Positions 868 through 32,182 of a DNA stretch of 64,000 nucleotides are shown one piece after another. Under the pieces are notes generated by a model. That model did no database searches and was not told the DNA's origin. It saw nothing but the letters and a program-made list of their open reading frames with translations. Position 1 is the stretch's first letter. Each line of letters starts with the position of its first letter. The DNA comes from Gilliamella sp. Lep-s35 (GTDB lineage: Bacteria; Pseudomonadota; Gammaproteobacteria; Enterobacterales; Orbaceae). A program made the translations under genes and the position numbers. Where the stretch lies: contig NZ_WTEX01000009.1 of the NCBI RefSeq assembly GCF_009795845.1, positions 1-64,000 of the forward strand. Direction: 5' to 3'.

Positions 868-1947
868 ATGACAATTGATGATTTAAAAGCACAAAACTTA
901 ATCTTATTTGAAGTGATCAGCGGTAGCCGTGCATTTGGTTTGGCTACTGAAACATCAGATACCGATATTACAGATACCGATATTAAAGGGGTGTTTTATT
1001 TACCTAGAGATAAATTTTATGGACTCGAGTATATTCCGCAAATTAGTAATGAAACTAATGATATCGTCTATTATGAATTAGGTCGCTTTGTTGAGTTATT
1101 GCTAAAAAATAATCCGAATATTTTAGAAGTATTGGCTTCTGTACCCGACTGTATTTTATATTAGCATCCAATTATGCAGCAGTTAACCCTTGATCTATTT
1201 TTATCCCAACAAACTAAACAAACCTTTGCTCACTATGCAATGTCACAAATTAAAAAAGCTAAAGGATTGAATAAAAAAATCAATAATCCCATTGAGGTGA
1301 AACGTAAATCGGTTCTTGATTTTTGTTATATTATTCAAGGTCAGCATGCTTATCCCCTCACCAATTGGTTAAGTGAAAAGCGTTTTGAGCAACACTTATG
1401 TGGTTTGGTGAATATTCCACATAGTCGAGATTTATATGCGCTTTTTTATGATGCATCGGGGGAGTGTGGCTATCATGGTATTATTCAAAATGATGATTCG
1501 ACCGAACTTTGCTTGTCATCGGTGAAAGTAGGCGCCACAGTAAATGCTTACTTAAGTTTTAATCGTGATGGTTTTTCATCGCATTGTCGTGATTATAAGG
1601 CTTACTGGCAATGGGTTGAAAAGCGAAATGAGCAGCGTTATCAAAGTAATATTAAAAGTGGTAATGATTTTGATGCTAAAAATATGATGCATACCATTCG
1701 CTTATTACAAGTTGCTCATGAAATAATGACCAAAGGCACCATTACCAATAAACGCACTAATCGAAACGAACTGCTCGCCATTAAAAATGGTCAATTAAGC
1801 TATGATGAGATTATGCATATCTCAGAAACATTGTTAAGCAAAATTGAAATCGCATCGCTAACATCATCACTACCTGAACTGCCTGATTCAAATGAAATTA
1901 TTGCTCGGTTAATTAAAATGCGGGAGTGGTTATATAATCGATATTAA
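868..1947 (+). pseudogene. MNT-type nucleotidyltransferase (COG3541-like), interrupted
   Basis: Two open segments, 868-1164 and 1165-1947, lie in the same frame and are separated only by TAG at 1162-1164. Joined, they give about 359 residues resembling the COG3541 predicted nucleotidyltransferases. The N-terminal part carries the minimal nucleotidyltransferase signature GSRAFGLAT followed by S-D-T-D-I. That acidic motif is itself duplicated by a 15-base tandem repeat (956-970 and 971-985), giving TDTDI twice. A nonsense codon plus an in-frame duplication in the active site argue for a dead gene. The RBS AAGGAAAGG precedes the ATG at 868. Family members often sit in phage or defence neighbourhoods; here the neighbour is an IS relic. 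Confidence 0.8.
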
Positions 1948-21832: not shown

Positions 21833-24253
21833 TTATTTATTTTCAGATCTCGCTTTCCAACGCTTAAGTAACAAAGCATTAGTCACAACACTCACACTAC
21901 TTAACGCCATAGCAGCACCTGCAAGCATTGGATTTAAAAACCCCAGTGCCGCAAGCGGAATACCAATTAAATTATAAAAAAAAGCCCAAAATAGATTTTG
22001 CTTAATTTTATGATAAGTTCGGCGCGAAATATCAATTGCATCAGCAATTAAAAATAAATTACCTCGCATTAACGTAATGTTTGCTGCATGCATAGCCACA
22101 TCAGTCCCTGTACCCATAGCAATACCAATATCGGCCGCCGCCAAAGCAGGGGCATCATTAATACCATCGCCAACCATTGCCACTTTATTAATTGCGGTTG
22201 AATTTTCACTTTGTTGCAGTTGATAAATATAATTAGCTTTATCTTGTGGTAACACCTCAGCAATAACTTTATCTAGACTTAATTGCTGACCAACCATATT
22301 AGCTACTTTCTGATTGTCGCCAGTTAGCATAACGGTTTTTACATTCAATTGATGTAATGCTTCAATTGCCGTTTTTGCTTCTTGTTTAATAACATCAGCA
22401 AATCCCAAGAGCGCCAATATCACCATACCACCTTCTAATTGCTGTTTGGCTAAAAACGAAATGGTATAACCTTTGCTAGATAATTCATTAATCTTATCGT
22501 CCATATTCACAAAATAAGTATTTAATGATTTCATCCAACGCAAGCTACCTAAATAATATTCTGTATTATCAACCGTTGCCATCACTCCCGAACCAGCTAC
22601 CGAAGTAATATTTTGAGCATAATGATACGCTTTAGCTTTACTTAAAATTGCTTTTGCTAGTGGATGCTCACTACCTGCTTGTAATGATGCAGCGAGCGAT
22701 AAAATCTGATCGGGCGTCTCGCTACCCATAATATCCATCTCAACTAATTCAGGTTTACCAATAGTTAAAGTGCCTGTTTTATCAAAAGCGATGGTATTGA
22801 TATTATGCAGTGTTTCTAACGCTTCGGCATCTTTAATTAAAATGCCATGACGAGCAGCCACTCCAGTACCCACCATAATTGCTGTTGGTGTTGCTAAACC
22901 TAAAGCACATGGGCAAGCAATCACTAACACCGCAACAGCATGGAGCAACGCTTGTTGCCAATCATGCGACATCATTCCCCAAGCCAATAACGTAACAAGT
23001 GCAATCAATAAAATCACTGGCACAAAAATAGCACTGATGCGATCAACAATTCGCTGGATTGGTGCTTTCTTAGCCTGAGCAGATTCAACCATTTCAATGA
23101 TTTTGGATAAAGTAGAATCCGCTTGAATCGCTGTAGTTTTAACGATAAGTAACCCTTCGCCATTAATTGTACCGCCAGTAACAACATCATTAACGGTTTT
23201 ATTTACAGGAAAGCTCTCGCCGGTTAGCATTGATTCATCACTACTAGATGCACCTTCAATCACAACGCCATCAACTGGAATACGCTCCCCTGGCTTAATA
23301 ATAACAATATCATGCACTTTAACTTGGCTAATAGGCAAACTCACCTCTTGCTCACCACGCCTGACTAAAGCAACATCAGGACGTAGCGCTGACAGGGCTT
23401 CAATTGCTTGTGTGGTTTGATGTTTAGCTTTTGATTCTAACCACTTACCAAGCAAAATTAAGGTAATAATAATCACTGAAGATTCAAAATAAAGGTGCTC
23501 ATCATTACCCAAGATAAACTGATACACCGACAGCCCATAAGCAGCACTAGTACCAATAGCCACCAACAAATCCATATTGCCTGACAACGCTTTAACCGCA
23601 TTAAAACCGCTTCGATAAAATTTAGCACCCAGTCCAAATTGCACAATAGAGGCAATAACCAATTGTAACCAAGCAGGCATCATCAAATGAAACTCAAAAG
23701 GTTTCAATAACATAGGTAACGCAAAAGGAATGGCTAAAATAATACAAATCACAATCGGCCAAAATCTAATAACCAGTTGTAACCAAGCTGGCATCATCAA
23801 ATGAAATCCAAAAGGTTCCAATAGCATAATAGATAACACAAAAGGAATGGCTAAAATAATAGAAATCACAATCGGCCAAGATACAATAACCAGTTGTAAC
23901 CAAGCTGGCATCATTAAATGAAACCTAAAAGGTTCTAATAACATAGGTAACACAAAAGGAATGGCTAAAATAACAGAAATCACAATCGGCCAAATAGATG
24001 CTTGTTTGTTAACTTTCTTTGCACCTGATTGTTGATCTGAAATTTTAATAGCACGATAGCCCGCTTTATCAACCGCAGACATTAACGACTCAATCGTAAC
24101 ATGTTCCTTGGCATCAACTGTTGCCTTTTCGGTCGCAAGGTTTACGCTAACATCAACAACGCCATCGACCTTTTTCAGCGCCTTTTCAACACGCCCAACA
24201 CACGATGCACAACTCATATCTTCAACAATAAAATGATATTGAACTGTTTTCAT
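21833..24253 (-). CDS. copA: Copper-exporting P1B-type ATPase, with triplicated membrane segment
   Basis: Pumps Cu(I) out of the cytoplasm. One N-terminal metal-binding domain has MSCASC (C15, C18); E. coli CopA has two. The core has the CPC metal-transport motif in ACPCALG (447-449), the actuator TGES near 344, the phosphorylated DKTGTLT (D491), SEHPLAKAI and the hinge [16 protein letters not shown]. Length is 806 residues because the first membrane region is present three times (residues about 87-200), adding about 77 residues to a single-domain CopA. Otherwise all catalytic motifs are intact. Substrate could in principle be silver. No CueR gene or clear CueR palindrome is visible nearby. 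Confidence 0.93.
23654..23995 (-). repeat. Triplicated 114-117 bp segment inside copA
   Basis: Three tandem units encode residues 87-123, 125-162 and 164-200, each of the form [18 protein letters not shown] followed by [16 protein letters not shown] copies differ at several positions each, and the middle one has an extra codon. They are therefore older than a single fresh slippage event and are unlikely to be an assembly slip. All three stay in frame. Confidence 0.9.
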
Positions 24254-24385: not shown

Positions 24386-25189
24386 TTAGTTGCGTAACTT
24401 TTCTGGCCACTCGTTTTGGGTTGAAACCAACAAATCTTTCACAATTCGAGGATTACCCGCCACCACATTGCCCGAAGCCATATAATTATTACCACCAACA
24501 AAATCCGTAATCACACCACCTGCCTCACGCAAAATCAGCTCACCACCCGCAATATCCCAGGGTTTTAAACCGATTTCAAAAAAGCCATCTAAACGGCCTG
24601 CGGCAACATAAGCAAGATCCAAAGCAGCAGAACCACTACGACGAAAATCGCCACATCTTACAAACAACTTTTGTAGCACAGCAAAATAGCTATCACTATA
24701 TTGTTTTTGTTTGAAAGGAAAAGCCATTGCCAGCACGCTATTATCTAAATCCTTAGCATTACTAACACGAATACGATAACCATTAAGTTGCGCACCTTTA
24801 CCCCGTGCAGCGGTAAACAGTTCGTTAGTCATTGGGTTATAAACAACAGCAATTTCGGTTTTCCCCTTAACGCGAGCTGCGATAGACACTGCAAAATGAG
24901 GGATATTTTTAATAAAATTGGTCGTACCATCAATCGGATCGATAATCCACTGAGTATCGGCATCATTACCTTTAACTAAGCCGCTTTCTTCGGCAATGAT
25001 AGTATGGTCAGGGTAAGCTTTTTTGATTGTTTCAACAATTAAAGCCTCGGCAGCACGATCCACATTTGTGGCAAAATCATTAGCGCCTTTGCTGTCAATT
25101 TCGATTGAACTAGGGTTTTCATAAGCCTTAATGGCCACATTGCCTGCTTTACGAGCAGCACGAATAGCGATATTAAGCATCGGATGCAT
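24386..25189 (-). CDS. suhB: Inositol-1-monophosphatase
   Basis: A 267-residue Mg-dependent phosphatase of the IMPase family that dephosphorylates inositol monophosphates; in E. coli the protein also acts in rRNA antitermination complexes. Metal-site motifs are visible: IIAEESG (about 64-70), WIIDPIDGTTNF (81-92) and the C-terminal KPWDIAGGELILREAGG near 211-227. The length and the opening MHPMLNIAIRAARKAGN match enterobacterial SuhB. It is monocistronic and transcribed in the same direction as copA, about 130 bases upstream of it. No unusual feature is visible. Confidence 0.95.
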   Translation of the reverse strand: MHPMLNIAIRAARKAGNVAIKAYENPSSIEIDSKGANDFATNVDRAAEALIVETIKKAYPDHTIIAEESGLVKGNDADTQWIIDPIDGTTNFIKNIPHFAVSIAARVKGKTEIAVVYNPMTNELFTAARGKGAQLNGYRIRVSNAKDLDNSVLAMAFPFKQKQYSDSYFAVLQKLFVRCGDFRRSGSAALDLAYVAAGRLDGFFEIGLKPWDIAGGELILREAGGVITDFVGGNNYMASGNVVAGNPRIVKDLLVSTQNEWPEKLRN

Positions 25190-25335: not shown

Positions 25336-25772
25336 TTAAGCATCTTTATAACGACGATCTTTTCGTATATATTTTAAACTATCCTTACCATCTGGCATAA
25401 AATAAATCCCATATTTAACTAACCCTCCTTGTTTAAAATAACAAATTAGTTTATAAGCTAATACCATGTTATAGTTGTTTTTTTCATCAATATTGAGATT
25501 AATAGAAGCAAGCCTTGGTTCATACATTTAATAATGTTTGTTCAATTGCTCTCATTAACAAGTAAGCTGATGAAGGTAAGCTTTGAAAAATTGTTGACAT
25601 ATCAAGGTACCCCATAGTCTGGCATGTGCTTTATAGCTCTAGCACGGCTGTTTAAAATACGCTCAATATTATCCATCACGCTAATAATTGTCTGTTCATT
25701 TTCAGTTATATCATCAACCGCTATACCGGATTCAAAATAACCATAAAGCAAATCATATAGTGAAGCACTCAT
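25336..25772 (-). pseudogene. tssE: Type VI secretion baseplate protein TssE, frameshifted
   Basis: Reads as a gp25-like TssE spread over three frames. The first part (25772-25602) opens MSASLYDLLYGYFESGI and includes NIERILNSRARA and PDYGVP, then hits TGA. One base on, it continues DMSTIFQSLPSSAYLLM. A second one-base shift near 25527 leads to YEPRLASINLNIDEK and on to 25336. The pieces PDYG(V/L)PD and YEPRL are hallmarks of TssE, and the joined length of about 146 residues is normal. Two single-base insertions make it dead. The start codon overlaps the tssJ relic by ATGA, as in a real operon. Confidence 0.75.
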
Positions 25773-25993
25773 TTACTTTCATCCACCAATTTTATTGTAT
25801 ATTGACTTGCAGATATTTCACGTGGCTTACTGATATTTAAATTCCCTCGATTCAAAACAAGTCGCCAGCTATTATCTTTTAGGTTTGGTTCTTTATAAAG
25901 AGCTGCAATACCTACTACTTTAGCTTTTTTATTAAATGAAGTATCAATAGAAATAGCAGTATTTGGTTTGAATATTATTTCTTTACTGTCCAA
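25769..25993 (-). pseudogene. tssJ: Type VI secretion lipoprotein TssJ, C-terminal relic
   Basis: A 74-residue fragment from a weak TTG start, with a stop codon directly upstream. NKKAKVVGIAALYKEPNLKD followed by SWRLVLNRG fits the last strands of TssJ (usual form: iGviAaYRd...WR). The signal peptide, the lipobox cysteine and the first half of the protein are missing, so it is 5' truncated. It runs into the tssE relic with a four-base overlap, keeping the order of a type VI operon. Identification rests on short motifs plus the tssE neighbour. Confidence 0.6.
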
Positions 25994-26014
25994 AAATCAT
26001 AGGAGACAAATATC

Positions 26015-26086
26015 ATGATCAAAAATTTACCAAACCAGCCTGCAAACAAACCAGTGGGAAAGCCCAAAGCGTGCTATGTACTTTGA
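26015..26086 (+). CDS. 23-codon ORF with strong RBS, possibly a truncated gene start
   Basis: AGGAGA stands eight bases before ATG at 26015. The ORF reads MIKNLPNQPANKPVGKPKAC and three more residues, then TGA at 26084-26086. The dispersed repeat copy D begins one base after the stop, so the ORF looks like the 5' end of a gene cut by the repeat. It could instead be a real micro-protein. No homologue is recognisable. Confidence 0.3.
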   Translation: MIKNLPNQPANKPVGKPKACYVL

Positions 26087-26224
26087 ATTGAGATGTGGCA
26101 TAATCAGCAAATATTCAATGATGCAAAAGATAAAAAAAACTAAGCGATTTAAGAAAAAACGCCTTATGCGTTTTTAGCGAATAGTTAATCATGAAGTGTA
26201 AACAACGCGATGTATTCCTACAGC
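26087..26224. repeat. Dispersed palindromic repeat, copy D, long form
   Basis: Begins with ATTGAGATGTGGCATAATCA (26087-26106), identical to 31890-31909. The palindromic part follows at 26151-26224 (AAAAAACGCCTTATGCG, then GTAAACAACGCGATGTATTC). Copies D and E therefore share a longer unit than copies A-C. It separates the type VI relic from the two secreted-protein genes. Confidence 0.65.
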
Positions 26225-26256
26225 TTAAATAAAAAAACCGTAGATTGGAAAAAAGA

Positions 26257-27334
26257 ATGTTAAAAAAATATTATATTAATAACATGTCTAACAATTAGTG
26301 CTATTAGTAATATCTGCCATGCAAAACCACCTTGCTTAAATAAGGCAGAGATTAAAAATCATCCTTTTAACATCCACTCTAAACCTTATCATTTTACTAC
26401 TTATCGCTGTGATGATGAAAATGGTGAATTTTTAAAACCCATTATATTAGAAGTTAAAGCGGATGATATGGATTACCAATTTAAAAATTTAATTGGATTG
26501 TTTGGGGAACTTGATATTAAATTTGTCAATTGGATGAATAAACCCACTTTTTTTTACTCTGGCACAAGGACTCATAATACTGAAGCTTATATTCCAATAA
26601 CTATCCGAGATAGTCATTTAACTGTTGATTGTGTATATGTCAGAAGACGGTTAATAAACTTGATGAAAACACAATATTCATATTGTATAAATAGACAAAC
26701 ATTAAATAGAGTTGATGATTTATATAAATTTTTTATCTATTTTTCGCCTGAATCAATAAATTCTTATGCTTATTTTCCCCATACTGATGAAAGTCTAGCG
26801 TATAGAGATTTTGATGTGCTTGTTGCCAAAGTGGGGGATATTAATTTTTATCAACGTTACCAATCCATCGAAGATTATGATTTAGATAAATATACGGTAA
26901 TAATGGCCAATAAAGATAAGCAATACCATTTCAAAAATGTTGAAGTGTTTCAAAGAATGGTGAGCTCAAATAGTTGCCAGTTCCCATATATGATTGGTTT
27001 AGATATTCTTGATTCTAGTGGTCATTTTACTTTCTATGATACAAAAAAACTGTCAACATTGTTGGATAAATCAACAAAAAAAAGAGATATTCATTCTTAT
27101 ATTCAACTAGCAAAAGTCCAACTTTATGAACAACCTAATTTTCAGCATCCAACTGATAACTATTTAAAACGAAACGATTTTGTCAAAATTCTTGATATAG
27201 AAAGGGACGAAAATAAAATGGGAGAAATTGAAGATAAAAATAAGGAACTTTTGTGGTTTAAAGTCAGCTATCAAAGTAAAAAGAATGGTGAAATAATCAA
27301 CTGGGTACCATGGAATTCGTTTAGAGACTGGTAA
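26257..27334 (+). pseudogene. Unknown secreted SH3-like protein, frameshift in poly-A of signal peptide
   Basis: The open frame from ATG 26468 gives 288 residues, but the frame is open much further upstream and reads as the end of a signal peptide (LITCLTISAISNICHAK) plus about 60 more residues. An ATG at 26257 starts that signal peptide in another frame; removing one A from the A7 tract at 26262-26268 would join them into a protein of about 358 residues. The C-terminal 75 residues (VQLYEQPNFQHPT, WFKVSYQSKKNGEIINWV) look like a bacterial SH3 fold. This may be a phase-variable gene, a recent pseudogene or a sequencing error. The neighbourhood hints at a periplasmic immunity protein, which is inference. 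Confidence 0.6.
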
Positions 27335-27394
27335 AAACAATACAAATTATCACTAAAAAATGGCTAAAATGATCAGTAAGGATGTACAAAAAAA

Positions 27395-28177
27395 ATGAAA
27401 TATTTTTTAATTTCAATATTCTTTTTACCTAATTTTGTAGTTGCCGACTATTTTTACGGTATTCAAATTAAAACTAATGGAAAATATAAAGAAGAATATC
27501 ATTATGATTATGATACTAATAGAGTTGTATATATAAATAATATAACTAATACCCCTAAATTATTAGATGAAACGTTTTTTGAAGATAACAATGAAAATAA
27601 TGTTGAATCAGATAAGATTCCATTAGATAAAACAAAGTTGGAAAGTGAATTTAAATTTGGATGTATTTCTGATAAATCGGAAAAAAAATCTAAAAATGTA
27701 GAATTTTTACAACACAGAACCACTAAAGATTATTTTTTTAAAGTCCTTTTATCCATAAAAGGCTGTGCGCCTAAAATGGTTGGTATTAATGTTTACCGAA
27801 AAAGAGATGGTAGTTTACTGCAAACAACCGATGATATCATGGATGCGCCAATTATTGATCGTTATTACGCTTTCGCTAAGAAAGAAGGGAAGTTTATTTA
27901 TCTAAATTTAGAAGGTCGTGATATAACCTTTGATAAAAATAAAAAACAGGCTTCTAAGCGAAAATTTTGTTCTATTAAAGATAATGGCGCTGTTATTGTG
28001 ACAGAAACACACCAATATGATGTCAACAAAAATCACTTCACTTTAGTTAATTCGCTATGTCAGTATAAAAAATCTGATGATAAATCAAATGATGAATTTT
28101 CTCGTCAATGTACACAAAAAGAAGAAAATTATTGCAATAACGAAAATGAACTTGATAAGGATTATCTTAATTTTTAA
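27395..28177 (+). CDS. Unknown secreted protein, possible immunity protein
   Basis: A 260-residue protein I do not recognise. MKYFLISIFFLPNFVVADYF is a signal peptide with likely cleavage after VVA (residue 17), so it is periplasmic or exported. The mature part is hydrophilic, charged, very AT-rich in codon use and holds several cysteines (FGCISDK, KGCAPKM, KFCSIK, SLCQYKK, then a C-terminal cluster) that could form disulfides. It follows the SH3-like gene by 60 bases in the same direction and ends at a strong terminator. Pairs of small secreted proteins next to type VI genes are often immunity proteins, but this is inference only. Confidence 0.55.
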   Translation: MKYFLISIFFLPNFVVADYFYGIQIKTNGKYKEEYHYDYDTNRVVYINNITNTPKLLDETFFEDNNENNVESDKIPLDKTKLESEFKFGCISDKSEKKSKNVEFLQHRTTKDYFFKVLLSIKGCAPKMVGINVYRKRDGSLLQTTDDIMDAPIIDRYYAFAKKEGKFIYLNLEGRDITFDKNKKQASKRKFCSIKDNGAVIVTETHQYDVNKNHFTLVNSLCQYKKSDDKSNDEFSRQCTQKEENYCNNENELDKDYLNF

Positions 28178-28279: not shown

Positions 28280-28837
28280 TTAGAACTCCATTAGTTCCTT
28301 TTCTTTATCAGCAAGTACGGTATCTAGTTTTTTAATCGCTGCATCGGTTGCTTTTTGGATGAGTTCTTGCGATTTGCGTTCTTCATCTTCTGAGATTTCT
28401 TTATCTTTTAGTAACGCTTTGATTTGGTCGTTGGCATCACGGCGAATATTACGGATTGATACTCGGCCTTGTTCTGCTTCGTTACGGACAATTTTAGTTA
28501 AGTCGCGACGGCGTTCTTCGGTTAATGGCGGAAGGGGTACACGAATAACCGTACCTGCTGACGCTGGGTTAAGCCCTAAATCTGATGTTAAGATTGCTTT
28601 TTCAATTAGTGGCGTAAGTGATTTGTCAAATACAGTAATCGCTAGCGTTCTTGCATCTTCAGCAACAATATTAGCTAGTTGGCGTAGTGGCGTTGGGCTG
28701 CCATAATATTCGACCATAATGCCATCTAATAAGCTTGGCGATGCGCGACCAGTTCTTATTTTTGAAATATGATTTTGAAACGCATCAATACTTTTTTCCA
28801 TGCGCGTTTGCGCTTCTTTTTGAATCTCGTTTAACAT
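28280..28837 (-). CDS. frr: Ribosome recycling factor
   Basis: With EF-G it splits the post-termination ribosome. The 185-residue length is exactly that of the family, and signatures are clear: [21 protein letters not shown] near 26-46, then [20 protein letters not shown] and the C-terminal helix ending EKELMEF. It is the last gene of rpsB-tsf-pyrH-frr, 29 bases after pyrH. In E. coli frr is followed by dxr; here dxr is elsewhere, next to deoR at 35.8 kb. Confidence 0.97.
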
Positions 28838-31500: not shown

Positions 31501-32182
31501 TATGTGTGTGTTATAACGTTAATTAATCATTAAAAGTAATGCTGTTATTCACGATTATTTTTTTGTAAAAAAATAATACGAAATGTAGCGCGCGTTTTAT
31601 ACCATAAATTGTATAAGATTACCATCTTTTTATATTTCCTATTGGCGATTTGTTTGGTCTTTTTAGTCTATCGCTAGCGAGTTAATAGGCAAATAAGGTT
31701 GTAATGAGTTTAGGAATCCCTTTTGTGTTGTTTACAGTCATTTGAAAGAAATAGGTAGCGTAATTTTCTACGTAAGCTAGTACTCACCATGAGGTATTGA
31801 CACAACTGTTTACTCTTGCGGTTAAAAAATTTAGGAATCTAGACGATTTAGAGCTTAATAAAACCGAAAAAGAGTAATACACATTTTTTATTGAGATGTG
31901 GCATAATCAATCACTATTTAGCGATTGAAAAGAGAGAAAAAAAGTTTAAGCAATTTATTCAGTTTTATAATACGGTTAAACCGCATAAAGAGTTTTTGAA
32001 AAAATACCTTATAAGTTTTTAACGGATTATTTTAACAATTGGTTAAAAGTGGCAAGCGCCTACAGTCAATACCAAAAGCTTAGCAAACCTGCTTTGCATA
32101 TTTTTACTACCGAATACAGCCAATAACTGGTTAATATTTTACTTTCAATAACCTTAGTTAAATGATAAAGGTGCAATGAATT
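31501..32182. other. Intergenic region with two dispersed repeats
   Basis: No gene is visible. It contains repeat copy G (31708-31740, minus-oriented core GTTTACAG with GGAATCCC) and repeat copy E: ATTGAGATGTGGCATAATCA at 31890-31909 and the palindromic part at 31998-32065 (AAAAAATACCTTATAAG, CGGATTATTTTAAC). Upstream of copy E, AAACCGAAAAAGAGTAATAC resembles a stretch near 33.87 kb, so the repeat unit extends leftward. The rpsB promoter must lie near 31510-31620. A cobB RBS, AAGGTG, precedes 32183. Confidence 0.5.

What the first reader, a model, noticed from the sequence alone, without database searches (positions are those of the whole stretch)
25336..25993. Relic of a type VI secretion operon (tssJ-tssE) in decay
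Minus-strand fragments read as the C-terminus of TssJ and a full-length TssE broken by two one-base insertions, still overlapping by ATGA. This shows that the lineage once had a type VI system here and lost it recently enough to keep reading frames. The two unknown secreted proteins on the other strand may be leftover immunity genes for type VI effectors, kept for protection against neighbours after the weapon was lost.
Basis: partly seen in the sequence, partly recalled or inferred. Interest (0 to 1): 0.55.

Follow-up and report, generated by a model that had tools for sequence, protein, structure and literature searches.

The report
Scar of a swapped type VI secretion system
A bee-gut-type bacterium (genus Gilliamella) keeps a broken tail-end of its old toxin-injection gene cluster at this spot while carrying a complete-looking cluster of another lineage elsewhere, so the weapon looks exchanged rather than lost.

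Summary
Minus-strand 25336-25990 is the C-terminal part of tssJ (cut at 25990) followed, through an ATGA overlap, by a full-length tssE broken by two frame shifts. The nearest relative (G022) has an intact tssM-A-F-G-J-E cluster directly upstream of suhB; the relic is colinear with it at 95% DNA identity and groups with it in a tree (100/99). So a T6SS cluster once stood here; the rest was not found in the genome. The break lies in insertion-sequence debris (IS3, IS481); beyond it the DNA belongs to the frr locus, which lies 121-314 kb from suhB in seven single-contig relatives. But the lineage did not lose its weapon: the genome holds an apparently complete second T6SS on two contigs (C40, C42), 91-97% identical to that of a distant relative whose core genes are only 84% identical, hence acquired horizontally. 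Loss and transfer of Gilliamella T6SSs are published (PMC8125069): a new instance of a known process. The two plus-strand genes are not leftovers of this cluster; they belong to the frr locus. Relatives of both do sit directly behind GH19-like or M23 effector modules, as immunity genes do; the window's copies are damaged.

The parts
24386..25189 (-). suhB (inositol monophosphatase family), anchor gene of the locus
   Evidence: ORF; 99% identical protein in G022 next to an intact T6SS
25336..25527 (-). tssE relic, 3' piece
   Evidence: tblastn to intact TssE residues 82-140
25529..25612 (-). tssE relic, middle piece, in another frame
   Evidence: tblastn to TssE residues 54-81
25605..25772 (-). 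tssE relic, 5' piece with start codon
   Evidence: tblastn to TssE residues 1-56; NCBIfam TssE 3.7e-8
25769..25990 (-). tssJ relic, C-terminal part; ATGA overlap with tssE; truncated at 25990
   Evidence: Pfam T6SS-SciN 1.3e-6; DNA homology to G022 stops at 25990
25991..26025 (+). debris of an IS3-family element (start of its first gene), at the break
   Evidence: 97% over 35 bases with DNA at the start of an IS3 gene in G007 (L123; family on the same element in L383)
26018..26233 (+). decayed end of an IS481-family element (transposase C-terminus)
   Evidence: matches the IS beside suhB in G012 and G019 (family on L036); 54 matches in the own genome for 25985-26240
26264..27334 (+). orfA: exported protein, member of a family that often follows GH19-like effector modules; start codon out of frame in this copy
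   Evidence: 96% to G022 beside frr; residues 8-360 in frame; neighbours
27395..28177 (+). orfB: exported protein, member of a family that often follows M23 peptidase effector modules; lacks about 55 residues against G022
28280..28837 (-). frr, anchor gene of the locus to which orfA-orfB belong
31861..32140 (+). second stretch of IS481 debris, on the far side of the orfA-orfB-frr-pyrH-tsf-rpsB block (ends approximate)
   Evidence: matches the same elements as the 26018-26233 stretch

Best explanation
The stretch is the 3' end of the resident T6SS structural cluster (probably the kind published as Ga-T6SS-1) that stood directly upstream of suhB. A rearrangement whose break point is now filled with IS3/IS481 debris cut the cluster inside tssJ and joined the stump to the orfA-orfB-frr block; the remaining tss genes are gone and the stump is decaying by frame shifts. 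The strain holds another T6SS of the same family, obtained by horizontal transfer, so the machine was replaced, not abandoned. Shown: identity and position of the relic, failure to find other pieces of the resident cluster, presence of a foreign-like second cluster, tree conflict. Inferred: that insertion sequences caused the rearrangement, that C40 and C42 are halves of one working cluster, and any order of events (gain before or after loss).
For: Relic plus suhB colinear with G022 over 1602 bases at 95.0%, against 76% to the own C42 copy. Tree of tssJ-E DNA: relic+G022 100/99, C42+G008 100/100; core-gene tree (suhB, frr, pyrH): own+G022 100/100 and G008+G024 100/100. Own C42 against G008: 90.9% over 9.5 kb; tssB-C-K region 97.0%; core genes 83.6-84.9%. 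G022's tssC-vgrG and tssM-G DNA find only C40 and C42 (73-78%) plus short weak stretches on C57 (65-72%) in the own genome. One tssC; tssJ only on C42 and in the relic. IS debris at 25991-26233. suhB and frr lie 121-314 kb apart in 7 of 7 single-contig relatives (computed).
Against: The genome is a draft (103 contigs). C40 (15.0 kb) and C42 (12.5 kb) are short; contamination is given as 0.03%, but linkage of the second T6SS to this chromosome rests only on a gene on C40 that I read as sstT (recalled). The substitution pattern of the tssE relic against G022 (13/3/19 by codon position) is not clearly different from an intact pair (20/11/50), so decay must be recent; single-base frame shifts in a draft could be sequencing errors, although the truncation of tssJ could not. 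The suhB-frr orientation varies among relatives (opposite strands in 5 of 7, same in 2 of 7), so I cannot tell inversion from translocation.
Confidence: 0.85

Rival explanations
1. The fragment is a partial duplicate copied from the intact C42 cluster, never part of a resident cluster here.
For: An intact tssJ-tssE of the same family exists in the genome.
Against: 76% DNA identity to C42 but 95% to the suhB-adjacent cluster of G022, in the same position and orientation; the tree places the two apart with strong support.
Confidence: 0.03
2. The lineage lost its T6SS altogether and the C40/C42 cluster is contamination, so the reader's reading (weapon lost, immunity kept) stands.
For: C40 and C42 are short contigs with 91-97% identity to another lineage; no contig joins them to the window.
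Against: Given contamination is 0.03% (table); C42 is 9% diverged from G008 in its tssM-E half, so not a stray from that strain; transfer of such a cluster between Gilliamella lineages is published (PMC8125069, passage of section 6).
Confidence: 0.1
3. The frame shifts are sequencing or assembly errors and the tssJ-tssE end is an intact part of a split but complete cluster.
For: Draft genome; two single-base insertions; codon-position pattern still coding-like.
Against: tssJ is cut at 25990 and followed by IS debris on one contig without N; the missing tssJ part and tssG-tssM of this type were not found in the genome.
Confidence: 0.04

Closest known systems
Ga-T6SS-1 of Gilliamella, with published multiple losses and transfers (Steele and Moran 2021, PMC8125069)
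   Same: Same genus and gene families; the paper states that Ga-T6SS-1 was lost several times in bumble bee Gilliamella, moved between Gilliamella lineages, and was in some cases replaced by Ga-T6SS-2 (passages).
   Different: Here the replacement appears to be by another cluster of the same family, and the scar of the resident one is still readable. The paper's main text has no word beginning with 'pseudogene', but section 10 describes pseudogenization of vgrG by nonsense mutations and mobile elements.
Orphan immunity genes of T6SS effectors
   Same: orfA and orfB families lie directly downstream of peptidoglycan-hydrolase-like effector modules in many relatives, and stand without them at frr.
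   Different: The window's copies are damaged; no immunity activity was shown.
WHIX effectors (PMC12135965)
   Same: Of four long effector genes that I looked at in loci with orfA or orfB homologues, two carry a WHxxxH motif (L177, L372); M23 toxin domains are also reported for WHIX effectors (passages).
   Different: Only the motif was compared, no profile; the other two (L179, L381) lack the W. These effectors are in relatives, not in the window.

Membership tests
TssE (baseplate gp25-like) | match to TssE/gp25 profiles | tested here: met
   TIGR03357 3.7e-8 on the first piece alone, 0.088 on the last, none on the middle; all pieces align in order to an intact TssE. Each piece alone is under the full-length cut-off.
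TssJ (outer-membrane lipoprotein) | match to TssJ profile | tested here: met
   Pfam PF12790 28.6 bits, cut-off 27.
TssJ (outer-membrane lipoprotein) | N-terminal lipoprotein signal | tested here: not met
   The N-terminal part is missing; homology stops at 25990. It is a relic, not a working member.
Functional T6SS at this locus | full set of core tss genes | tested here: not met
   Only part of tssJ and a broken tssE remain; no other G022-type pieces found in the genome.
Ga-T6SS-1 (Gilliamella) | groups with the published Ga-T6SS-1 reference cluster | not tested
   No reference cluster was used; the name is inferred from the genus and from this being the widespread type (a tssE of this kind in 21 of 35 genomes).
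T6SS immunity protein (orfA, orfB) | gene directly downstream of an effector module in relatives | tested here: met
   orfA: GH19-like module directly upstream in 5 of 8 non-frr loci; orfB: M23 module directly upstream in 9 of 16 loci. Not at the frr site itself.
T6SS immunity protein (orfA, orfB) | neutralises the cognate effector | not testable with these tools
   Needs an experiment.

The most novel reading that the evidence does not exclude
The incoming T6SS made the resident one dispensable (a weapon swap within the genus caught midway), while two immunity genes against the wall-cutting effectors of neighbours are inherited at a separate fixed site (frr) as a standing shield that starts to decay once the strain's own arsenal changes.
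Probability: 0.2. Interest if true: 0.5.

Novelty: new member of a known kind. Interest (0 to 1): 0.3.

Why it matters
It shows, in one genome, both the scar of a resident T6SS and the cluster that seems to have taken its place, so that the order of loss and gain could be read in a gut-symbiont lineage; and it points to two unnamed exported protein families as likely immunity proteins against GH19-like and M23 T6SS effectors. The general fact (loss and exchange of Gilliamella T6SSs) is already published.

Tried and rejected
Duplicate of the intact cluster: rejected. Cluster merely split with its other half elsewhere in the genome: rejected, no such half found. Simple local deletion: not enough, since the right-hand side of the junction belongs to another locus. 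An ordinary gene starting near 26016: rejected; that stretch is IS debris. Scars in G012 and G019: about 33 bases resembling the tssE 3' end are left beside suhB, followed by an IS481 element; suggestive of further losses at the same site, too short to be sure. Pfam and NCBIfam gave no name to orfA or orfB. Literature: four searches; two papers opened: PMC8125069 (outline, found passages, section 10) and PMC12135965 (found passages only); the others seen as search listings. In what I saw none describes this scar; supplementary files were not read.

Full report
What is there. On the minus strand, 25990 down to 25336 reads as the C-terminal part of TssJ and then TssE, which starts inside the tssJ stop (ATGA). 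TssE is complete in length but lies in three frames. The pieces match the expected profiles when searched apart: TssJ in Pfam above the cut-off and TssE in NCBIfam at 3.7e-8 for the first piece, 0.088 for the last and nothing for the 29-residue middle. Pfam's gp25 model sees the first piece only at E 0.083.

Is there another T6SS? Yes. PF04965 and PF12790 searches of the own genome find an intact tssE and tssJ on contig C42. C42 (12.5 kb) carries tssM-A-F-G-J-E and two similar lipoprotein-like genes (TssE and TssJ confirmed by NCBIfam, the other names read from sequence and order). C40 (15.0 kb) carries tssB, tssC, tssK, tssL, an OmpA-like gene, hcp, tssH and vgrG, with a gene that I read as sstT beside tssB (tssC is confirmed and TssL by Pfam, the other names are read from sequence). 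tssC is single-copy. Between them the two contigs appear to hold a complete set.

Which is the old one? I fetched the DNA upstream of suhB in 31 relatives (3 of the 31 stretches are under 1.2 kb and say nothing). In 3 of the 31 (G022, G007, G003) an intact tssM-A-F-G-J-E cluster stands directly upstream of suhB, in the orientation of the relic. The relic is colinear with G022 through suhB, the spacer, tssE and tssJ at 95.0% over 1602 bases, and homology stops at window 25990; the own C42 copy is 76% identical. In a DNA tree of 22 tssJ-E sequences the relic joins G022 (100/99) and C42 joins G008 (100/100). A tree of suhB+frr+pyrH from the 26 genomes for which I had both loci joins the own genome to G022 and G008 to G024 (both 100/100) (several inner branches are weak, and G024 and G027 are long in the tssJ-E tree). 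C42 is 90.9% identical to G008 over 9.5 kb, and the tssB-C-K end of C40 is 97.0% (G008) and 97.4% (G031) identical, whereas suhB, frr and pyrH are 83.6-84.9% identical to G008, and suhB and frr 84.8 and 83.9% to G031. The relic is therefore the inherited copy and C40/C42 an acquired one. I did not find the rest of the resident cluster: G022's tssC-vgrG and tssM-G stretches match only C40 and C42 at 73-78%, with short stretches at 65-72% on C57.

The break. Window 25991-26025 is 97% identical over 35 bases to DNA at the start of an IS3 gene in G007, and 26018-26233 is the decayed end of an IS481-family element, with 54 matches to 25985-26240 in the own genome. From 26227 on, the DNA is 94% identical to the frr locus of G022: orfA, orfB, frr, pyrH, tsf. 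A second stretch of the same IS481 debris lies at about 31861-32140, at the other end of that block, and relative to deoC the block is turned round compared with G022. In the seven single-contig relatives suhB and frr lie 121 to 314 kb apart (computed), on opposite strands in 5 and on the same strand in 2. A rearrangement between insertion-sequence copies is the natural reading; the exact event is not resolved. In G012 and G019, which have no tssE of this type but have a tssC, an IS481 element stands beside suhB behind about 33 bases that resemble the end of tssE, which hints that the same site was emptied more than once.

Age. Against G022 the tssE relic has 13/3/19 changes at codon positions 1/2/3; suhB has 2/0/11, frr 5/1/31, pyrH 2/0/31, and an intact tssE pair (G022 and G007) 20/11/50. 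The relic may be somewhat relaxed, but not clearly so; decay is recent.

The two plus-strand genes. orfA (26264-27334) and orfB (27395-28177) sit beside frr in G022, G012, G019 and G003, so they are not left over from the T6SS cluster. Their families do belong to the T6SS world. Outside the frr site, a GH19-like module stands directly upstream of an orfA homologue in 5 of 8 loci (not in L176, L178, L180); G033 has four and G011 three homologues in tandem (one of the three cut by the contig end). The GH19 matches are weak (E 1.7e-4 to 0.0097 for the four tested, all below Pfam's cut-off). An M23 peptidase module stands directly upstream of an orfB homologue in 9 of 16 loci (not in L369-L371, L380, L382-L384), with E-values from 1e-10 to 6e-19, above the cut-off. 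orfB homologues also lie near the tssM end of the T6SS cluster of G003 (L052). VgrG genes lie in some of the same islands. Of four long effector genes looked at in such loci, two (L177, L372) carry the WHxxxH motif after which WHIX effectors are named and two (L179, L381) lack the W. In the window the start codon of orfA is out of frame with the rest and orfB lacks about 55 residues found in G022. They are best called decaying orphan immunity genes, by inference.

Comparison with print. Steele and Moran 2021 (PMC8125069; outline, found passages and section 10 seen) report that Ga-T6SS-1 moved between Gilliamella lineages, was lost several times in bumble bee strains and was sometimes replaced by Ga-T6SS-2, and that Gilliamella other than G. 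[quoted passage not shown] The genus is fixed by named relatives: the best suhB matches are Gilliamella bombi (96%), G. bombicola (95%) and Gilliamella sp. App6-5 (94%). The finding is an instance of that published process, with the scar and the incoming cluster both visible in one genome.

Noticed in passing
L173-L180, L369-L384 and window 26264-28177: Two unnamed exported protein families (orfA, orfB) recur directly behind GH19-like and M23 peptidase effector modules, respectively; likely immunity proteins. Neither has a Pfam or NCBIfam name.
   Followed up: partly
window 31861-32140: A second stretch of IS481 debris bounds the orfA-orfB-frr-pyrH-tsf-rpsB block, which is turned round relative to deoC compared with G022.
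   Followed up: partly
L035-L065, DNA upstream of suhB: This site is variable across the genus: T6SS clusters, frames that look like two-partner secretion transporters (read from sequence only), insertion sequences or housekeeping genes, depending on the genome. It may be a hot spot for competition systems.
   Followed up: no
L036 about 940-982 and L063 about 900-946 (reverse complement): About 33 bases like the tssE 3' end beside suhB in G012 and G019, followed by an IS481 element: possible scars of further T6SS losses.
   Followed up: partly
window 23680-24000: In the P-type ATPase gene on the minus strand a stretch of roughly 110-120 bases appears repeated in tandem (similar lines near 23690, 23790 and 23910), lengthening the protein in frame.
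   Followed up: no
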